Of a stretch of DNA of 64,000 nucleotides, positions 1-9,741 are shown piece by piece. The notes under the pieces were generated by a model. That model worked only from the letters and a program-made list of their open reading frames with translations, ran no database searches and was not told the origin of the DNA. Origin of the DNA: Lichina pygmaea (taxonomy: Eukaryota > Ascomycota > Lichinomycetes > Lichinales > Lichinaceae); assembly GCA_963422465.1 (NCBI GenBank), contig OY730170.1:4316379-4380378 (forward strand), written 5' to 3'. Each line of letters begins with the position of its first letter. The first letter of the stretch is position 1. The translations under genes and the position numbers were made by a program.

Positions 1-1433
1 GCGAGCGCGCGCTGAATGCCCGGTGGAAGAGCCGGCGAGATTAGCTCCGGGACCGCCTGCTTCGCGGCCTCCTTCTCGACGGCCGGCGCGACAGCCGGCG
101 AGCGCGTCTTCGGGACCGCTTTCTTCGGGATGCCGGCGGCTGAGACCGGCGGCTTCCTCTTCTTCGCTTCCTGCTTCTCCTTCTCCTTCTCTTCCTGTTC
201 CTTCTCGACGATATCCATCAACTTCTTGAGGGCGTCGCTGTGAGTTATTTTAGCGCCGGATTTCTTCCCGGAGCTCTGAGAGCTCTGAGGGCTCTTGGTG
301 ACCCTGGCGGGGTTCTTCGGCGACGACTCCACCGCCTTGGCCTTGTCGGCGCCCCGCTTCGGCGGCGTGTTCTTGGGCGTGCGAGTATTCTTCGACGACG
401 ACTTGGTTGCCGGCGACGAGGTGTTTTGGAAAGTACCGTTGTCCGAGACGGTTGTGCTCTCGAAGCGCGCCACCTCTGGCAGAGCGGCCGATCCCTCGAC
501 GTCGTCGGCGAGCCGCACATCGCCGGCGCGTCTCGAGCGTTTGATGGCCTCTCTTTTGGCGGCGGCCTCTTTCTTGGCCGCTTCTCTCTTGGCCGCTTCT
601 TCCTCCGCCGCCTTTTCCGCGGCTAAGTTCTTGAACCATTCTTCCGCCTCCGCCTCGGCCTCTCTCTTCATATCCCTGCGGGTCACTTCAGCCAGCGTGG
701 CAGTGAAGAGGTCGAGATCGTGAGCGAAGCGGAAGCGTTCCTCGAGGGGAGGAAATTTTTTTGAACCCGTCTTGGCCGGAGCCGGACGCTTCTCCTCAGC
801 CGCGGAACGACGATGGCGCTTCATGTATTCTGCCAATGAGATTTTGTCTCTCCAGACCATACCCGGCGGCGGCGGCGGGGTTTTGCTTCCGTCGTCGACG
901 GGGCCGAAAGGCGGACGAGCAGCCATGACCTGCTCCTGGTCCTCGGTCACGGCGGAGTGCTTCTCGCTTTGTGCCTGTGGCTGGTGTGGCTCCGGCACGT
1001 CGTCCTTGGTGAGATCGATAACCTGGTTGCCTTCCACCTTGGACGGTGAAGCGTTGCCATCGTCGACGTGGCCGAGAGGCGGACGAGCAGCCATGACCTG
1101 CTTCTGGCCCTTGGTCACGGCGGAGCCCTTCTTGATTTGGGCCTGTGGCCCGTGTGGCTCCGGCACGTCGTCCTTGGTGAGATCGATAACCTGGCTGCCT
1201 TCCACCTTGGACGGTGAAGCGTTGCTATCGTCGACGGGGCCGAAGGGCGGACGAGCAGCCATGACCTGCCCCTGGTCCTCGGCCACGGCGGAGCCCTTCT
1301 CGCTTTGTGCCTGTGGCTGCTGTGGCTCCGGAATGTCGTCTGTGGTAAGATCGATAACCTGGATGCCTTCCACCTTGGACGGTGAAGCGTTGCTATCGTC
1401 GACGGGGACGAGCTTCGGGATCTCCGACGACAT
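1..1433 (-). CDS. SIM-repeat protein, 5' part (runs off the left edge)
   Basis: An open frame of 477 codons runs leftwards from the ATG at 1433 with no stop before the window edge, so the C-terminus is missing. Residues of roughly the first 170 form three tandem 56-residue repeats (period exactly 168 bp; the VIDLT codons recur near 1349, 1181 and 1013). Each repeat reads VDD-NASPSKVEG-QVIDLT-DD-PEP and ends near QVMAARPP. VIDLT followed by acidic residues is the classic SUMO-interacting motif seen in SUMO-targeted ligases. After the repeats come a short proline stretch, a conserved-looking helical segment (FRFAHDLDLFTATLAEVTRRD), a long E/A/K-rich coiled region, and a Ser/Lys/Pro-rich basic tail with NLS-like KKRKPP. 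I do not recognise the family. Poly-SUMO binding in the nucleus is an inference from the motifs. No RING finger is visible in the part present. Confidence 0.75.
   Translation of the reverse strand, partial: MSSEIPKLVPVDDSNASPSKVEGIQVIDLTTDDIPEPQQPQAQSEKGSAVAEDQGQVMAARPPFGPVDDSNASPSKVEGSQVIDLTKDDVPEPHGPQAQIKKGSAVTKGQKQVMAARPPLGHVDDGNASPSKVEGNQVIDLTKDDVPEPHQPQAQSEKHSAVTEDQEQVMAARPPFGPVDDGSKTPPPPPGMVWRDKISLAEYMKRHRRSAAEEKRPAPAKTGSKKFPPLEERFRFAHDLDLFTATLAEVTRRDMKREAEAEAEEWFKNLAAEKAAEEEAAKREAAKKEAAAKREAIKRSRRAGDVRLADDVEGSAALPEVARFESTTVSDNGTFQNTSSPATKSSSKNTRTPKNTPPKRGADKAKAVESSPKNPARVTKSPQSSQSSGKKSGAKITHSDALKKLMDIVEKEQEEKEKEKQEAKKRKPPVSAAGIPKKAVPKTRSPAVAPAVEKEAAKQAVPELISPALPPGIQRAL
930..1433 (-). 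repeat. In-frame triple tandem repeat, 168-bp period
   Basis: Three consecutive copies of a 168-bp unit encode 56-residue repeats, each with a VIDLT SIM. Copies are nearly identical at the nucleotide level and the period keeps the frame, which suggests recent duplication or homogenisation. Confidence 0.9.
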
Positions 1434-3084
1434 GATGATGGTGATCCGACGCGTTCGACGATGGACGGAGAGTCGAAAGCGGATATCGAGTCAGGGATCA
1501 AGGGGCACTCGAGAAGCAGACGGTGCAAAGATAAAGGTCGAAGAGCGCTTGACAGCAGGATGGTTTAATCAGCTCGGACGAGCAAAGACTTGATGAACAA
1601 GGCAGACTTGGTTGATTGCTATCGAAGCTGAATACTATGTTCTGCGTGTGGTGGAGGAGGAAAGAAAGAAGAAAAGGGGGGGGCGAGAAGAGCCGGCGGG
1701 GTTTTTTATATGATGTGTTATGTCTCGTGGGAACCGTTGCGCAAATAGAGCCAGTGTGGTATTATCCTCCTGCCCTTGCCCTAGGTCCGACAATGAGTCT
1801 GCCAGCATTTCCACATGCTTCCCCACCGGCACGCGAAAGTGGAAAGGTGTCAGCAATGGTTCTCGTGACAACACCAGGGAGGTCAATGACGAGGCTCGTT
1901 CCAAGAGTATAGTTTGATACATGCGAATAGAACCTATTGTGTTCTGACCGGCCAGCTACCATCGCATTCAAGTCATCAACGAATCATTCTATCGCGCCTT
2001 ATGGTCCTCCTAATCCTCCGCCGACCAATTCTACGCTCAGCTGCCCGCTCCACAGCCACACCGACGCTGTGGCGACGGCAGCGTTGATCCAGCTGGACCA
2101 ACAGTCTCCAACGGTCTCTCATGATGTCATTGAGACCAATGATATCAACGGTCTATATATTCAAAAGGGTCCGCACGGCCTCAACAGGATGAACGGTCTG
2201 ACGGCTAGGATGCCGCTGGCAGCGCAAGTGCCATCCTCGTGTCGTGCAGTCTCCAGTGGTATACTCCCGGCTGTCTGGCAATATCAATCTCGTCTCCATT
2301 TCTTCCTTTTGTACATACGTTTGTATGTACGACTTGCGGCAGCATACTATGAGGTCCAAAGAGGGTTTGAGTTTGGCCAATATGTGAGGTAGATCTTCGG
2401 GCTAATCAAAGATCTGCCGCACTCCCTGTCCTTACCGATGCCGGCAACTGACTACCGGTACCGTAAGCGGGCTGACAGCGGAACCTGATTGCCAGGCCCC
2501 CCCACCCCATACTCCTGGCAGCACCACCAACGGCGCAGGCGGGAGCAGGGGGTATGCCTCGTAGGGCGGCTCTGCCGGAGAACATCACAGAAGCGAGTGC
2601 GTCGTTACACAGAACAGACGATCAATCTGCGAAGCATCAGCCCTTGCTGACCATGTCACTTCTGAGAGCTTGACAGACGGGCCATCTTCCGCTCCGATAG
2701 TCGATCCATGAAGTCAGGCCTCGACACTCCTGGGTCAACTCGGAACACCAGCACATGCAAAGGGTCTCCAGCCAATATAATGAGCATATCCATTGTGAGA
2801 AGACATCAGGGTGATTATCTTTCTGGTGTGGAATCTTACAGGTACCTTCGTATGGAGTGCGTTTCGAATACGTACGAGTACTTGTACGAGTAAGCTCTTT
2901 CAACCCTCGGTGAGGCTCTGCAAAGTCACGTGGATACCATTAGTCATACAGCCACGCCCAGTGCACGTGACCTCTCAGCCCCTATCTTCATAAACTCTTC
3001 GTGGCCCTGAAGATTCGCTCTGTTCCCAAAAGAAAAAAACGCCCCGGCTGCCTTTGAAGGCCACCAAAATGAAAATTCCCTTCC
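1434..3084. other. Intergenic, no supported gene
   Basis: Short overlapping reading frames occur here on both strands, but none shows family resemblance, consistent splice signals or coding-like composition. The first few hundred bases upstream of 1433 should contain the promoter of the SIM-repeat gene. I see no clear TATA box. Confidence 0.5.
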
Positions 3085-3179
3085 CTCTCTAACAGGGAAT
3101 CGAACCCTGATTACCAGCGAAGCCAGAGTTCTGAGAACTGCATTGACAGGCTGGAGTGCTACCATTACACCATTAGAGA
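3085..3179 (-). tRNA. tRNA-Asp (GUC) with a 24-nt intron
   Basis: Read on the minus strand, the sequence folds into a complete cloverleaf. The acceptor TCTCTAA pairs with TTAGAGA, the D stem is GTGT/GCAC with a GG-containing loop, the anticodon stem CCAGC pairs with GCTGG, and the T arm is CAGGG-TTCGATT-CCCTG. The anticodon loop is CTGTCA plus C, giving anticodon GTC and C38, as is typical of tRNA-Asp. A 24-nt intron (3120-3143) sits at the canonical position after base 37. The discriminator base at 3085 is G, which fits Asp. A run of four T follows the 3' end (3073-3076), as expected for Pol III termination. Confidence 0.9.
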
Positions 3180-3354
3180 CGATTGTTCGAAGAGGCTCAG
3201 AACTCTCATGAAGGAGAATGAGGATAGCTGGATATTTGTCTATCCTTGGACTTCTAGGCTGGGGGTGGTTTACTAAGAGCGTGATCCAAATGTGACGAAT
3301 TCTCCATTGGTACGCTATGAGATACCTTAAAACTCAAGGTACCATAACGTCGAG

Positions 3355-3365
3355 CAGTGAAGACG
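3355..3365 (+). repeat. Left target-site duplication of the non-LTR element
   Basis: CAGTGAAGACG occurs here and again, identically, at 6801-6811, directly bounding the retroelement. An 11-bp perfect direct repeat of this kind is expected from target-primed reverse transcription. Confidence 0.85.
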
Positions 3366-3410
3366 GGCCTGCAACGACTCGAACCTCCACGTGGTGCAGG
3401 CTGGGAACCT

Positions 3411-4480
3411 CGGGGCAGTCGATGGCGGGCGGCTTCCCAGGCTGCTCGTAGTCGCTGCACCGAGAGCTAATCGAGTCACCGGTCGAGCTGCTGGTGTTGC
3501 GGAGCGACGGGCCACCGGAGGTGTCGCGCAGGCACCCTAGACGCCCCCGTGAAACAGCTACAGCAGAACAGAGGACTGCGACCAAGCTTGGGAGATGAAA
3601 ACCACCCGACAGACGACTACCGTGTACGCTACGGCCCGAAGCCAGGCCCACAGCTGGTGGATGTGAAGTCTAGGCGTCTGATAGGGCACCTCTGGAGTAG
3701 TCGAGAGGAGTTCTCGTCACGTCACCCTCGTAGCAGAGTTTCCAGCTAACGTGTGAGGATCTGCTAGGGGGGGAGTGGCCTTGGCACCGCGGTGTTGTTA
3801 ATCGAACGGGGACCACCTGTTAAAGAAGGAGAGTGGTCGTACGAGGAGACATCGCCGCTCCAGTGCCTAAGGGCCGTGTGATAGCCAAAGTGCTGGCTTG
3901 ATGGTTTTGCCTAAGGCCTTGGCACGAAGTCTCTTCGTACGATCCACAATCTGGGGCCAGGGGACTGGGTTATCTAGTGGGCCAACAGGTGCAACCGGGG
4001 CCCCACAGGCGACAGCGGACCAAGGAGAACTCCTCCCTACTTGGTTAGTGGGCTGGAAAGGCGGCCCTGCAGGTGCTGGCACGGCCTGCAGGGTCTGTAA
4101 GGCCTGCGAGGCATGGTCGGCCTTCGTACGAGAGATCTGCGAAGGTAACGCGAAACAGTTAACAACTGCGAGGCGTGGCATATAATGGCAGTGACGGAGG
4201 TAGGGCCTGGGCCTACTACGAGACTGTCTATATGGCCCGAGAGGACGGATGCGCATGCCGGTTCGTACGGAGTGCAGGCTTAGGCTGCAAACAACAAGCT
4301 CAGGGAGCAAACTACAGTTGGAGCGTGGGCTCTGGGCTGGTGACCCAGCGCTCCGAAGCAGGATCCCAGGGGTGAGCACGTACGGCGGAGTGCAAGAGAC
4401 CTCGGGACTGTGGGAAAGCGTGGTAGAGACCCTGTGGGGGGGTGCCAACTCTACACTATGTTCTGGCATAGTACGACTGT
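3411..4480 (+). repeat. 5' monomer A of the retroelement
   Basis: This is the first of two tandem copies. The landmark GATGGC at 3421 recurs at 4492, and GGCATA at 4465 recurs at 5541, giving a period of 1071-1076 bp with high but imperfect identity. Bases 3366-3410 upstream do not match copy B. Near its 3' end (4458) the copy carries an ATG equivalent to the gag start, followed by only about 27 sense codons. Confidence 0.85.
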
Positions 4481-5556
4481 GGCGGGGCAGCGATGGCAGG
4501 CAGTCTCCCAAGCTGCTTGTAGTCGCTGCACCGAGAGCTAATTGAGTCACCGGTCGAGCTGCTGGTGCCCGTGGAGCGACGGGCCACCGGAGGTGTCGCG
4601 CAGGCATCCTGGACGCCCCCGTGAAGCGACATCAGCAGAACAGAGGACTTCGACCAAACTGGTTACGAAAACCACCCGACGGATGTCTACCGTGTACACT
4701 ACGGCCCGAAGCCAGCCTTGCAACTGGTGGATGTGAAGTCTAGACGCCCGACAGGGCACCTCTGGAGTAGACGAGAGGAGTTTTCATTGCACACCCCCTC
4801 CTAGCAGAGTCTCCAGGCAGCTAATGCATCGAGGATCTTCTAGGGGGGGAGCGATGTCTGTACCGCGGCGTTGTTAATCGAACGGGGACTACGTGTTAAA
4901 GAAGGCGAGCAGGTGGCACGAAGGATTTCCGCCGCTCCAGTACCTAAGGGCCGTGTGATAGTCAAAGTGCTGGCTTGATGGTTTTGCCTAAGGTCTTGCC
5001 ACGGATTCTCTTCGGGCCACCTACAGACCGGGGCCAGGGCACTGGAGGTTCTCCAGTGGGCCACCACGTACAACCGGGGCCCCACAGGCGACAGCGGGCA
5101 GACGGAGACTCCTCCCTACTTGGTTAGTGGGCTGGAAAGGCGGTCCTGCAGGTGCTGGCATGGCCTGCAGGGTCCGTAGAGCCTGCGAGGCATGGTCGGC
5201 CTCTGTACGAGAGATCTACAGAGGTAACGCGAAACAGCGAGAGCTGCGGGGCGTGGCATATAATGGCAGTGACGGCAGTAGGGTCTGGGCCTACTACGAG
5301 ACTGTCTATATGGCCTGAGAGGACGGAAGCGCATGCCGGTCCGTACAGAGTGCAGGCTCAGGCTGCAAATGACGGGCTCAAGGAGCAAACTGCAGTTGGA
5401 GCGTGGGCTCCGGGCTGGCAACCCGGCGCTCCGAAGCAGGACCTAGGGGTGAGCGTACACGGCGGAGCGCAAAAGACCTCAGGACTGCGGGGAAGCGTGG
5501 CAGAGACCCTGCAAGGGATGTCGACTCTGCGCTATGCCTCGGCATAGCTCAACTGT
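4481..5556 (+). repeat. 5' monomer B of the retroelement
   Basis: This is the second tandem copy of the ~1.07-kb monomer. Its last part contains the ATG (5534) that opens the gag frame, so the first gag codons belong to the repeated unit. By analogy with mouse L1 and other elements with monomer arrays, the monomer probably holds the internal promoter. That role is inference. Confidence 0.8.
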
Positions 5557-6556
5557 GGCAAAGAACGAGCTGGAGCAGTCAACAGAGTGGCTGGCCAGTA
5601 TTGGGAAGTCGGCGGAGGTATCCCGACGAGTCTACTCCGTGCTGGTCCACGGAGTCAGGGCCAAGTCCATCGATGCAGAGCAACAGCAACAGGCGATCGA
5701 TGTCCTCACCCGGCAGAACCGTACCCTACACCCAGGACTCGTGATTGTGAAAGTGGCGTGGCCTCGGGCAGCACAAGGAAAGGACTACTCATCGCTAGTG
5801 GTGGATACCTACGAGCCGGCAGCAGCAAACCGAATACTGGACGAGGGCATTGTCGAGGGAGCGGATGTCAAGACATGCGAGATCTACCATCGCAACCTAC
5901 GATTGCGGCAATGTTACAAGTGCCAGCGATACGGCCATGTAGCGACAGCATGCCGTGACCTACAGTGCTGCGCCCACTGCTCTGGCCAACACGACACCCG
6001 ACAGTGCAGAGTCTCAGAGGATCCAGCCCGGGCCCGCTGCGGTGCCTGCCATCAACGAGGACACAAGGCGTGGGATAAAGCCTGCACCACACGTGACAAG
6101 GAGCTCAACCGCCTCACAGCTGCAAGGATGGCAGCACCCGGACGATTTCTAGTACCACGGGTGGAGACACAGGGCGACAAGTGCTTGCACAACAGCAGCA
6201 ACAGCAGCAACAGCAGCAACAGCAACGGCGACATCAGCGCCAACGGTGACAATAGCAGTGGTGGTGTCGACAACACCCCCAGCCCCCCCAGCCCACCACC
6301 ACCACCCCCCGCGCGGGCTCCTGGTGGGAGGCGCCCACGCAGCAGTGACGGGGATGGCGATACGCGCAGCAGCAGCACTGTCCCCCCTACTGCACCAACC
6401 CGAAAACGACGAGGGCGGGTGAGGACACAACTGCCCGGCCAACGTACAATCACGATGTCACAGCTACGCAGCTTCGCAGCAGCAGCAACACCACCTCCAG
6501 CAACAGCAACACCAGCAACACCAGCGGCCTCCACAACCCCTCCTCTTCCTGAATAA
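5534..6556 (+). CDS. Retrotransposon gag-like zinc-knuckle protein
   Basis: This is a 340-residue open frame. Residues about 15-120 contain the conserved Tad-type gag segment (WLAS, VLVHGVR, LHPGL-IVKVAWPR, YSSLVVD, ANRILDEGIVEGA). Three consecutive CCHC-type zinc knuckles follow at about 130-190: CYKCQRYGHVATAC, CAHCSGQHDTRQC, and CGACHQRGHKAWDKAC. The C-terminal third is low complexity, with an (NSS)n run, a proline stretch and basic patches. Tad1-family ORF1 proteins are usually longer at the N-terminus, so this is either N-terminally shortened or started inside the monomer repeat. It should bind element RNA and form the ribonucleoprotein. No reverse transcriptase accompanies it. Confidence 0.8.
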   Translation: MPRHSSTVAKNELEQSTEWLASIGKSAEVSRRVYSVLVHGVRAKSIDAEQQQQAIDVLTRQNRTLHPGLVIVKVAWPRAAQGKDYSSLVVDTYEPAAANRILDEGIVEGADVKTCEIYHRNLRLRQCYKCQRYGHVATACRDLQCCAHCSGQHDTRQCRVSEDPARARCGACHQRGHKAWDKACTTRDKELNRLTAARMAAPGRFLVPRVETQGDKCLHNSSNSSNSSNSNGDISANGDNSSGGVDNTPSPPSPPPPPPARAPGGRRPRSSDGDGDTRSSSTVPPTAPTRKRRGRVRTQLPGQRTITMSQLRSFAAAATPPPATATPATPAASTTPPLPE

Positions 6557-6800
6557 GGAATCTCGAGGTTTCTGCTGCTACAGACCTCCTTTCTTGTTCA
6601 ACCGTTATCCCAGCAGTTTACCGTCGCTAGAGACGTGTGGGACAATAAGGTTTTTCGCCCTTTGGGCCCTGGAGCCTAGAGGTCTTGATCTTGCAGCTCT
6701 AGGGCCCAGAGGTTTTCCTTGTTACACAGCTACACAGTGTTCCCGGCATAGTCTAGCAGTAGCTAGTTCTGAAACGGAGTAGGAATACCATACCATACCA
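6557..6800 (+). other. 3' UTR and TACCA tail of the retroelement
   Basis: This noncoding tail of the element ends in a short run of TACCA repeats (about 6786-6800) immediately before the right target-site duplication. Short tandem tails instead of poly(A) are known for several fungal non-LTR elements. Confidence 0.75.
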
Positions 6801-6811
6801 CAGTGAAGACG
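6801..6811 (+). repeat. Right target-site duplication of the non-LTR element
   Basis: CAGTGAAGACG is identical to 3355-3365 and directly follows the TACCA tail. Confidence 0.85.
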
Positions 6812-7497
6812 TTGCGAAGGCCTGGTTAATCGATCGATGGGTTGCTCGCTCGACGATCCCTGAATAATCTTTCTCTACTACATCGTCTCTGTCCTTACCA
6901 CTTGACACTCATGACACTCTATAAATGGACTGCGAAATCAATCAGAGTGTTACTAGAATGTACGGACATGGATACGGTGACACACACAATCCGATGTGAC
7001 TGAGAGAAGTGAAGCCTATATGATTGAAGAGCGATGTCAAGGCCAACGAGTCATGGGCCGGCAAAGCCGCACCGATTCGACGGCATCGGGCCTGAAGCGG
7101 TCGATGTCTGCGCTCTTTGCTACTTTGGGAAATCAATGTGACAGAAGTTTGACGACGTCAACTGTCGGCGTTTCCTGTACGACCAGTGAGTCATGCATCC
7201 CGATTCTCATGCGTAAACGCCAGTGTTGCACCCGACCTTCGCCATGCTCTCTTGGTGATGACATAGAATACCCATTGTCCGTTTGCCTCTTCATGATATA
7301 TTTCTTCAGACTGACGGGAAACCTGAGAGATTAGAAACTTGACATCAGTGAAGATGATGGTTAAGAGATGAGATATGCAGAGCAATTCCTCCTGTTGACC
7401 GATTTATATCCAGAGATTGATGCCAACAACTGGAACTATGCTGTGCTCAACCGACCCGCAAACGATATCACAGACGCGAGTTCTCGAGTAGAAGATT
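6812..7497. other. Intergenic, nothing recognised
   Basis: This AT-richer stretch lies between the retroelement and the 3' end of the XRCC4-like gene. The reading frames are short and unsupported. Confidence 0.5.
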
Positions 7498-8786
7498 TTA
7501 CAGCTCGTCGTCATCGTCGTCTGTCGCGGTCTCGTCCCCGGAAATCGCGCTCGGCTCCGCAGCCTTCGTGAATGGGTCAGCTGCTCGAGGGTCGTTCGAG
7601 GTACCGCCGGTGCCCGGAAAAGGCAGTTCACGTCGAGGAGGCGGATCAGCACGCTGTTGCCGGGGCTGTGATTGTCTCGTCTCGGATGCTCGAGGTTCAA
7701 CGAGCTTGTCTTTCTGGGTTGGAAGAGTTGGAGGCCTCGGGTCGTAGGCTTCAGACTCCTCCTCTGCCGTCTCCTGGTCGGACGGTTCTGGGCTGTTTCG
7801 AGATGAGCCCTCGTTGGTATCGGTATCGTTCGCATCGTCAGCATCCGACCGTCCAGGAGACGAAGAATCCCCACTCGCGCCAGCCTTTCGCTTTCTCGGC
7901 CGCGACGGACGATCCCCTCCAGAGGCGGTCGACATGACATCTAGAAGCTCATGTAAATACAAGTCACCCAGAGACTACTACGTCAAGCAGCTGTCGTCGC
8001 TCACCGTCCTTGCCGTCCAGCTTGACCCGATCCAGAAGCCGCTGTTGCTCTCGGATTTTTCTCTTCTTTGAGTTTAGGAGCGCCTGAAACCTCCCGAGCA
8101 CAACATTCTCGTGCTCGTCCTTGGCTTTGATCAGTTCATCTAGATGTCGCGTAAGCTCTGCGATCGATTCGTCATGGCACTTTGCGCGTGCAGCAAGAGA
8201 TGCCTTCTCATCCTCGGCCGCCGCGACCGCCTTCGCGGCCTGGCCAGCCCAGTCGAAGAGCTCAATCTCTTGAGCTTGGTTATATTGCAGCGGAATGCTT
8301 CCAAGCCTTTGCTACGTCGGAGTGGATCCTTCAGCGGCCCGGTCGAAAAGAGTCATAGAGCCCGATTCTCGTACCGTGATTCCTCCAACGTTCTTGCGAA
8401 TTGTAATGATCATCTCCTCGGCTTCCGCGACAGTAGCCATCAGCTCGACTCCCGTCGTCTCCTCTGCGCGGCGCTTCTCTCCGGTCCTAGGGAGCATGGA
8501 CCACGAGACCACCTGCTCCCATTCGTCTTCTGGGCCATTGTAGTTCTTGGCTCGTATCTTTGCCAGGTGTGCCTTTCTTACTTTTGATCGCCGTGTCAGC
8601 TCAGATCAGTCATATCGACGCTCTAGTATCAAGCTCACTGGACCCCACGTATGGGCACGTCCCTTCCGTCCCGACCAACTTGAGGTCTAGCGGCGACGGG
8701 CCGTCACGTGTCACCTGAACTAGCACGAACGAATCTTGACTCCCCAATGCTTGCGGAATTCTCAAAACCCGCGAAGCCTCTGCCAT
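7498..8786 (-). CDS. XRCC4/Lif1-like NHEJ protein
   Basis: I assemble four exons: 8639-8786, 8375-8580, 8005-8311 and 7498-7940. The introns are 58, 63 and 64 nt with GTGAGC, GTACGA and GTGAGC donors, and all phases agree, giving 367 residues. The N-terminus (MAEASRVLRIPQ, FVLVQVT, SPLDLKLVGTEG, AKNYNGPEDEWEQV) and the central part (IRKNVGGITQRLG, IELFDWAGQA) match the XRCC4 head domain. A coiled-coil stalk follows, ending in FQALLNSKKRKIREQQRLL. The tail is Ser/Pro-rich with a basic RPRKRK NLS and an acidic DDDDDEL terminus. XRCC4/Lif1 is the obligate partner of DNA ligase IV in non-homologous end joining. The gene is divergent from the Byr4 gene. Confidence 0.85.
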
Positions 8787-9741
8787 GTCGACTGGACACG
8801 TGCTTATCACTTTGTAGAATCGGCGCAGCCGTGACCGACGATCAAACAATCGATAGCTCACCGGCGCATGCGACGCCCCGCGCGGGGCAGACGCGACTAC
8901 AGTCACACGCGAATATAATGACTCAGCATTTAGTCAGCCGTCACCCCCCCAGCCTCTCGCTTACGCTGCCGAAAATGGCAAGGCGCCGGGTAGGACACGA
9001 ATCACGCCCCAGCCATTTTCTTTGGCAAGCGCGAGAAGGCGATCGTCAACGGGAAAAAAGAGCAGCTTTCAACCTCATCTTCATCCTTTCCATCTCTCAC
9101 CTGCAATTCGCCCTCTTCCGGCGACGTCGTCGTCGACCTTCGAGCGTCGTAGGTCGCTCATCCGCTCTTTCGTCCATATTACCCATTGGATAGAGTTCGA
9201 CTTCAACCCCCCTGACGACGCTGAGTAAGGCGACCGGCGCAAGGTCCCTTCCCTTTTTGACAGTCGCGACTGCCAACTCGGCAAGAATGGCTTGAATCTC
9301 CAGACGACAACAACAGACCCCGCGGTAAGGTGAGTACACAAGTTTTCCGCCCAGCTGGCTTCTGTTCTCATTCTCTCATCGTCCGCTTCGCTTTTGATTC
9401 ACTTTCTCGATCGTCTAAGCTTCTGTTCTCGGCTTTTGCACTCTCCCGCTTCCTTCACAACCGCGAAGATGCCTTGTCTTGCTCTAATTCTCACCAGGAT
9501 TCTCTGTAGGCTACCCATTATCGGGCCCTATTTCGGATACTTCCTGCTGCCGACGATATCGGTCCGAGTCCGGGTCTATCGGTACTGGCCGGACGGGCCA
9601 CCTCGACGGGAGGAAGTCGGGACAGTGAGGTCTACGGAAGTCGAACCTGTTGCCCGGAGCTCGAACGCAATCAAACATGCGATGAAGACCTTGAACAAGA
9701 ACGAACCCCTCGCCGAAGACACGACGACGAATAAGCCTCTC
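8787..9741. promoter_or_regulatory. Divergent promoter region (XRCC4-like / Byr4)
   Basis: This 950-bp interval separates two start codons facing apart, so both promoters must lie here. GTAAG/GTGAG donors near 9324 could start a 5'-UTR intron of the Byr4 gene. A frame open from 9394 joins the Byr4 frame without a stop, so part of this interval could be coding. Confidence 0.45.

What the first reader, a model, noticed from the sequence alone, without database searches (positions are those of the whole stretch)
3355..6811. Complete gag-only non-LTR retroelement with perfect 11-bp target-site duplication
Both ends are defined by CAGTGAAGACG, yet between them there are only two monomers, a zinc-knuckle gag and a short 3' UTR with a TACCA tail. 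No endonuclease or reverse transcriptase is present. A mobile element carrying only gag recalls HeT-A of Drosophila and would depend on another element's enzyme. It may be a distinct nonautonomous family in fungi or a one-off internal deletion.
Basis: partly seen in the sequence, partly recalled or inferred. Interest (0 to 1): 0.8.

Follow-up and report, generated by a model that had tools for sequence, protein, structure and literature searches.

The report
Double-jump chimera with HDV-like ribozyme cap
This stretch is not one complete mobile element: it looks like a three-part copy made when a reverse transcriptase jumped from the RNA of a gag-only retroelement onto two copies of a 1.1-kb non-coding RNA that begins with a self-cleaving-ribozyme fold, which would explain why these composites start at exactly the same base.

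Summary
In detail: 11-bp target-site duplication, two ~1.1-kb monomers, zinc-knuckle gag, short 3' UTR with TACCA tail, no RT. The reading as one complete gag-only element does not. (1) The gag part is 5'-truncated; relatives carry a ~495-aa gag starting ~6 nt after the element's 5' end. (2) The monomers ("M") are not the gag element's promoters. M's start occurs 240 times in the genome. In 39 of 40 fetched places M starts at the same base; all 40 end at GTGG, followed by some 35 different junctions: 32 truncated LINEs, 5 gag pieces, 2 undetermined, 1 solo M. M's first base is the predicted cleavage site of an HDV-like ribozyme. This resembles Magnaporthe MINE chimeras (1.1-kb WEIRD RNA + truncated LINE); the window copy is best read as M-M-gag, made by two template jumps. 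(3) A gag-only family is real: copies of several ages share the gag-to-3'UTR structure, 7 of 9 tested have duplications, and gag dN/dS is 0.21-0.25 between open copies. Gag-only families share a covarying 3' hairpin with RT-bearing "LINE-C", the likely enzyme donor. Ribozyme activity, transcription and homology of M to WEIRD are untested.

The parts
3355..3365 (.). left copy of the target-site duplication CAGTGAAGACG
3366..4482 (+). M1: full-length copy of the ~1.1-kb non-coding RNA (base 4483, C, is ambiguous between M1 and M2)
   Evidence: 38 other M1 places at 96-99% identity; same start in 39 of 40 fetched places, same GTGG end in 40 of 40
3366..3477 (+). HDV-like ribozyme fold; predicted cleavage just before 3366
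   Evidence: Rfam RF00094, 36.1 bits, full model, gathering 50; P1, P3, P1.1 paired in all of 22 aligned copies; own descriptor hits the window only here
4483..5558 (+). M2: a second, ~85% identical type of the same RNA, lacking its first ~45 nt
5559..6556 (+). 3' part of the gag ORF of a gag-only element, 5'-truncated (frame of the 340-aa ORF 5534-6556)
   Evidence: gag residues ~200 onward of L003
5906..5956 (+). CCHC zinc knuckle (weak match, residues 125-141)
   Evidence: PF00098, E 0.0035, 17.8 bits, below cut-off 20.8
6557..6800 (+). 3' UTR and (ATACC)n tail of the gag-only family
   Evidence: 40 of 40 scored candidates (54 in first look) match, 76-100%
6743..6777 (+). 3'-terminal hairpin shared with RT-bearing LINE-C
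   Evidence: compensatory changes in 18 aligned ends
6801..6811 (.). right copy of the target-site duplication

Best explanation
The 3,435-bp insert is a tripartite chimeric retrocopy made in one target-primed reverse transcription event. A LINE enzyme, probably of the LINE-C lineage, nicked the target and began copying the 3' end of a gag-only RNA. It left that template inside gag, jumped onto the 3' end of an M2 RNA, copied it to about 45 nt short of its 5' end, jumped again onto the 3' end of an M1 RNA and copied that to its true 5' end, which an HDV-like ribozyme had set by self-cleavage just before GGCCTGC. Repair left the 11-bp duplication. Shown: the three-part anatomy, the duplication, the recurrent M ends, the many different M junctions, the conserved ribozyme fold, the gag-only family, and the 3' hairpin it shares with RT-bearing LINE-C. 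Inferred: self-cleavage, the order of jumps, and which enzyme acted.
For: M is followed by 37 different sequences in 40 places (first 12 nt, leading Cs ignored; about 35 sites if those within 1-2 nt are merged): 32 LINE ORF2 in sense, 5 gag, 2 undetermined, 1 solo M. Duplications of 12-16 bp flush with M's start in 12 of 19 places whose expected 3' end was in hand. Copies that share a junction are not closer in M than average, so they are mostly separate events. Two more M-M tandems have a 5'-truncated downstream unit. HDV fold at M's first base.
Against: The HDV match is below Rfam's gathering score (36-41 against 50 bits). In P2, pair 15/108 is broken in 7 and 11/112 in 5 of 21 distinct copies. 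No flush duplication in 7 of 19 places (L014, L015, L031, L044, L045, L046, L051). Three fetched copies L041, L051, L053 and some pairs share a junction, which alone could mean spread of one chimera; L028/L029 are fairly close in M (1.4%, 16th percentile). No M source gene was found. No RNA data.
Confidence: 0.82

Rival explanations
1. A complete gag-only element whose two 5' monomers are its own promoter repeats.
For: The three parts sit inside one flush 11-bp duplication. M2-type units are joined to gag in two further places, L004 and L014.
Against: Sampled gag copies with a full N-terminus begin ~6 nt before the gag ATG with no monomer. L004 and L014 join M to gag at other points. M is mostly joined to LINE ORF2.
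Confidence: 0.04
2. The M-LINE and M-gag joints are made at the RNA level, by ligation (ribozyme-made 5'-OH and cyclic-phosphate ends are ligase substrates; recalled) or trans-splicing, before reverse transcription.
For: In LINE-A contexts the base before the joint is T in 26 of 27 cases read (L019 unclear), which could be a cut-site preference.
Against: No AG acceptor before the joints. The M RNA would need a defined 3' end anyway. The 5'-truncated inner M in M-M tandems fits jumping more simply.
Confidence: 0.1
3. A one-off internal deletion of an RT-bearing copy.
For: One distant gag-only element, L065, is an internal-deletion derivative of LINE-C.
Against: Copies at 92, 90, 76, 75, 73 and 73% identity span the gag-to-3'UTR region, and 7 of 9 tested have their own duplications.
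Confidence: 0.02
4. M is the 5' UTR of one (perhaps lost) autonomous LINE, and the chimeras come from jumps between that LINE's RNA and others.
For: HDV-like ribozymes cap the 5' UTRs of R2 and some other non-LTR elements (cited in PMC3636483, passages).
Against: None of the 40 fetched M places was seen joined to an intact ORF1-ORF2 unit; M's end is always GTGG and the partner differs. L047 is a solo M.
Confidence: 0.08

Closest known systems
MINE chimeras of Magnaporthe grisea (WEIRD RNA + 5'-truncated MGL LINE; one tripartite WEIRD-MgSINE-MGL), PMC2104539 (parts 1-3 of 5 read)
   Same: 5' part is a full-length ~1.1-kb non-coding RNA (1113 nt there, 1117 here), 3' part a 5'-truncated LINE, same orientation, 10-20-bp duplications, junction hot spots, a tripartite case.
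   Different: Here a gag-only element is a partner, the middle unit is a second M, a solo M exists, and an HDV-like ribozyme sits at the 5' end. The GCC*A/U junction motif reported there was not seen as such. Sequence homology to WEIRD was not testable.
Gag-only half elements: HeT-A and HTR of Drosophila (PMC10088271, passages); HAL1 of mammals (recalled)
   Same: gag kept, RT lost, dependent on another element's enzyme.
   Different: Here dispersed in a genome with ordinary TTAGGG telomeres, no promoter-bearing 5' UTR (about 6 nt), donor inferred from a shared 3' hairpin.
HDV-like ribozymes at the 5' end of R2 and other non-LTR elements (cited in PMC3636483, passages) and variant HDV ribozymes of fungi (PMC5640933, passages)
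   Same: Nested-pseudoknot fold; in R2, self-cleavage frees the element RNA from its cotranscript, comparable to the exact start of M.
   Different: Here the fold caps a separate non-coding RNA, not a coding element. PMC5640933 has no occurrence of 'retrotranspos' in its main text.

Membership tests
MINE-type template-jump chimeras | full-length ~1.1-kb non-coding RNA as 5' part | tested here: met
   M1, 1117 nt, same ends in 39-40 of 40 places
MINE-type template-jump chimeras | 3' part is a 5'-truncated LINE-type RNA, same orientation, variable junction | tested here: met
   32 LINE ORF2 and 5 gag partners of 40; 37 different junction sequences
MINE-type template-jump chimeras | whole composite flanked by one target-site duplication | tested here: met
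   window 11 bp; 12 of 19 others 12-16 bp, one of these a solo M
MINE-type template-jump chimeras | junction motif GCC*A/U | tested here: not met
   base before the joint is T in 26 of 27 LINE-A contexts; gag joints differ
MINE-type template-jump chimeras | sequence homology to WEIRD | not testable with these tools
   no WEIRD sequence at hand
HDV-like ribozymes (RF00094) | P1, P2, P3, P1.1, P4 with the C before P2' | tested here: met
   97.1% of cells paired in 22 aligned copies (21 distinct) against 24-37% for slid versions; G-C to A-U change in P2 in 4 M2 copies
HDV-like ribozymes (RF00094) | score over Rfam gathering cut-off | tested here: not met
   36.1-40.8 bits against 50
HDV-like ribozymes (RF00094) | self-cleavage | not testable with these tools
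   needs RNA
gag-only non-LTR elements (HeT-A/HTR/HAL1 kind) | a family with gag, no RT, and duplications | tested here: met
   7 of 9 copies with duplications
gag-only non-LTR elements (HeT-A/HTR/HAL1 kind) | the window copy is a complete member | tested here: not met
   gag 5'-truncated at ~residue 200
gag-only non-LTR elements (HeT-A/HTR/HAL1 kind) | telomeric location (HeT-A) | tested here: not met
   window copy at C2:4.32 of 5.46 Mb; other copies dispersed
promoter monomers of a LINE 5' UTR | monomer belongs to one element family | tested here: not met
   partners differ from place to place; gag copies with a full N-terminus lack it

The most novel reading that the evidence does not exclude
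M is a ribozyme-capped RNA that spreads as a 5' hitchhiker: it seldom starts reverse transcription itself (one solo copy in 40) but is added to the 5' ends of other elements' insertions by template jumping. The ribozyme would restore the exact 5' end from any read-through transcript, and a fixed 3' end would be the landing site. WEIRD of Magnaporthe may work the same way. It would be a retroposon whose main route of spread is template jumping.
Probability: 0.3. Interest if true: 0.82.

Novelty: new variant of a known kind. Interest (0 to 1): 0.62.

Why it matters
It offers a testable cause for the full-length 5' part of MINE/WEIRD-type chimeras: a self-cleaving ribozyme could set it. It also shows a lasting gag-only, RT-less LINE family in this (apparently fungal) genome with a likely enzyme donor, linked through a covarying 3' hairpin, and provides some 240 starts of the captured RNA for the study of template jumping.

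Tried and rejected
Rejected: one-off deletion; monomers as promoters of the gag element; M as a head-to-tail array cut by successive ribozymes (two loose pattern hits, not followed up); chimeras spread mainly as units; splicing (no AG before the joints); the one RT near a 3' motif, C4:815968, which lies in a nested element that reads as Ty3/gypsy type by eye inside a gag-only copy.

Led nowhere: an M source gene (three of the 40 scored places were not fetched); a solved-structure hit for a 1,598-aa window ORF (none at E 1e-10); a full-length LINE-C (the copies fetched are 5'-truncated); naming the organism. Genome searches score only 40 to 150 candidates, so absences are weak. The cross-check used 100 of 284 motif places and 150 of 1,791 RT candidates.

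Not used: M's 3' end and the gag/LINE-C 3' end share GGCATAG, perhaps by chance. M1's 3' end does not fold better than shuffles (z -0.31).

Full report
What is there. The window is C2:4316379-4380378 of a 32.47-Mb, 8-contig genome. CAGTGAAGACG stands at 3355-3365 and 6801-6811; between lie two ~1.1-kb repeats, a 340-aa ORF with a weak CCHC match, and a 3' UTR ending in ATACCATACCATACCA. tblastn of a 1,083-aa LINE ORF2 has no hit in window 1-9000. The duplication is flush with boundaries set by other copies.

The gag-only family. A search with gag plus 3' UTR gave matches over nearly the whole query at 92, 90, 76, 75, 73 and 73%, and one at 97% and 94% in two blocks (40 of 92 candidates scored). 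Against L003, six copies (L001, L002, L005, L008, L009, L011) begin at one position, 6 nt before the ATG of an ORF starting MSSDKTDF or close to it; L007, L012 and L013 begin within 4 nt of it; L006 and L010 are shorter. Of nine copies tested for duplications, seven have one of 10-17 bp (L001, L002, L005, L007, L008, L009, L012), some a few bases from the aligned start; L003 and L006 have none. The L003 gag is 495 aa. LINE pieces near these copies lie upstream of gag or in antisense (L001, L007, L013), none between gag and 3' UTR. Gag thus seems to have been kept by selection in a lineage without RT, and many sampled copies have since decayed.

Further gag-only elements. L065 (46% aa to the window gag) and L066/L067 (41 and 40%) also run from gag to a 3' UTR with no ORF2 match in sense between, except for the remnant in L065 described next.

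The enzyme donor. A 29-nt 3'-end pattern occurs 284 times (up to 3 mismatches; reversed control 0). Crossing 100 listed places with 150 scored RT places gave one neighbour, a nested LTR-type element. Of five motif places fetched, L075, L076 and L078 hold the ORF2 end of a GC-rich LINE, here "LINE-C" (26-37% aa to the LINE-A ORF2), and L077 and L079 share its 3' UTR. L100, L101 and L102, with RT, end in the same motif; L100 and L101 match the end of the window 3' UTR at 79-80% over 63 and 49 nt. L065 keeps ~36 codons of the LINE-C ORF2 end and matches 309 nt of its 3' region at 76% (E 1e-57), so it is an internal-deletion derivative of a LINE-C-type element. The common end folds into a hairpin in 18 aligned ends (not all in hand): two pairs show GC 11/AU 7 and GC 11/AU 6; 14 double-changed cells against 5.0 in shuffles (0 of 500); 98.9% paired against 20-49% when slid; pairs with double change 3 against 1.8 (17 of 500); further pair types are fewer than in shuffles, 5 against 7.0. 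LINE-C is the likely donor lineage; that its protein acts on gag-only RNA is inferred.

The monomers belong to something else. M (3366-4482) is 96-99% identical in 38 other places (40 of 389 candidates scored). I fetched 40 distinct places with M (38 of type M1, two of type M2; L024 repeats L016). In 39 the match starts at the same base, in L045 one base later; all 40 end at GTGG. The next 12 nt differ in 37 of 40 (leading Cs ignored); merging L028 with L029 and L041 with L051/L053, which lie within 1-2 nt, gives about 35 sites. Thirty-two run into LINE ORF2 in sense (L015 and L016 are the references themselves, and L038 is a weak, late match), five into gag (L004, L014, L019, L050, L052), two (L023, L027) are undetermined, and L047 is a solo M inside a LINE with a 16-bp duplication, the empty site being visible in L016. 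Of 20 further stretches around M2 ends, 18 match the LINE references (L089 only ~290 nt downstream); L083 resembles L027 and L098 matches nothing in hand. M's 26-nt start occurs 240 times, reversed control 0.

The composites insert as units. Duplications of 12-16 bp flush with M's start were found in 12 of 19 places whose expected 3' end was in hand (L004, L016, L017, L021, L025, L033, L037, L041, L043, L047, L049, L053; not L014, L015, L031, L044, L045, L046, L051). Copies with a shared junction are not closer in M than average (70th to 99th percentile), except L028/L029 at the 16th, so recurrent use of hot spots fits better than spread of one chimera. Among 39 M1 copies, window included, 611 of 705 differences from the majority are C>T or G>A, 539 of 705 at CpG sites, as if copied from one source and decaying.

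The window copy is M-M-gag. Its M2 lacks the first ~45 nt, and its gag begins ~200 residues in. Two more M-M tandems, C4:3398265-3400248 and C5:3624874-3626830, have an upstream unit intact over the query and a 5'-truncated downstream unit, as expected if the enzyme leaves one M RNA and restarts at the 3' end of another.

A ribozyme fold at the start of M. Rfam's HDV model matches window 3364-3480 over its full length (36.1 bits, gathering 50; E 0.011 for 4.4 kb, 0.00054 for 221 bp) and M's start in all five other loci tried (36.7-40.8 bits). The first base of P1 is the first base of M. In 22 aligned copies (21 distinct) P1, P3 and P1.1 are always paired. P2, a pseudoknot not marked as paired in the Rfam model, changes from G-C to A-U at 16/107 in four M2 copies. 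Covariation score 0.039 against 0.027 in shuffles (0 of 500); double-changed cells 5 against 1.5 (1 of 500); pairs with double change 2 against 1.3 (187 of 500, no signal); the slide by -1 scores 0.052 with 32% paired. P2 is broken at 15/108 in 7 and at 11/112 in 5 of 21. A descriptor that I wrote after seeing the sequence hits the window only at 3366 and nothing in 1.28 Mb of first-order Markov sequence. Cleavage is not shown.

How it most likely works. A LINE enzyme starts on the gag-only RNA, leaves it inside gag, lands on the 3' end of M2 RNA, leaves that, lands on M1 RNA and reads to its ribozyme-made 5' end. After GTGG comes C in 28, T in 11, A in 1 of 40, a hint of one-base pairing at landing. 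In intact LINE contexts the base before the joint is T in 26 of 27 (my reading; 14 of 41 rows gave no context). The M1-M2 joint in the window fits this (intact M2 reads CT|CGGGG); the M2-gag joint does not (GCAG|C).

Literature. PMC2104539 (parts 1-3 of 5 read) describes MINE: WEIRD RNA joined to 5'-truncated MGL, 31 copies, no solo WEIRD, one tripartite element with a 14-bp duplication. PMC5640933 (passages) reports 230 variant HDV ribozymes in 26 fungal species. PMC3636483 (passages) cites HDV-like ribozymes of R2. PMC10088271 (passages) names gag-only half elements. No paper in the listings was seen to join HDV-like ribozymes with MINE/WEIRD or with fungal non-LTR elements; most listed papers were not opened, and the library lacks most subscription papers.

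Limits. Template-jump chimeras and gag-only elements are known kinds; the ribozyme cap on the captured RNA and the gag-only partner are the new parts, so I call it a new variant of a known kind.

Noticed in passing
window 3085-3179 (-): A tRNA-Leu (CAA) gene lies 176 bp from the insertion site; whether insertions favour tRNA genes was not tested.
   Followed up: no
L097 (C6 end) and L098 (C1 start): An M2-LINE copy runs straight into TTAGGG repeats at the end of C6, and an M2 copy lies 540 bp from the CCCTAA start of C1: perhaps healed chromosome ends.
   Followed up: partly
L048 (C4:305930-307630): M is flanked on both sides by similar but not identical LINE sequence, so a chimera seems to have inserted into another LINE copy near the matching position.
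   Followed up: partly
L001, oriented 2608-3314: This gag-only copy sits directly behind the 3' end of a LINE-C copy.
   Followed up: no
genome-wide: Many LINE-A copies keep a 1,083-aa ORF2 without stops, which suggests recent or present activity.
   Followed up: no
L017-L053 M copies; gag copies: Decay is mostly C>T/G>A at CpG in M, and stops inside gag copies are mostly TGA: a sign of CpG methylation or a related process.
   Followed up: partly
window 4446-4483 and 5522-5559: Both M types end in a hairpin with one compensatory end pair (A-U in M1, G-C in M2) and a short tail; it may mark the RNA's 3' end, but M1's fold is no better than shuffles.
   Followed up: partly
L074 (C4:811600-820200): A gag-only copy of the L067 type is split by a nested element that reads as a Ty3/gypsy type.
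   Followed up: partly
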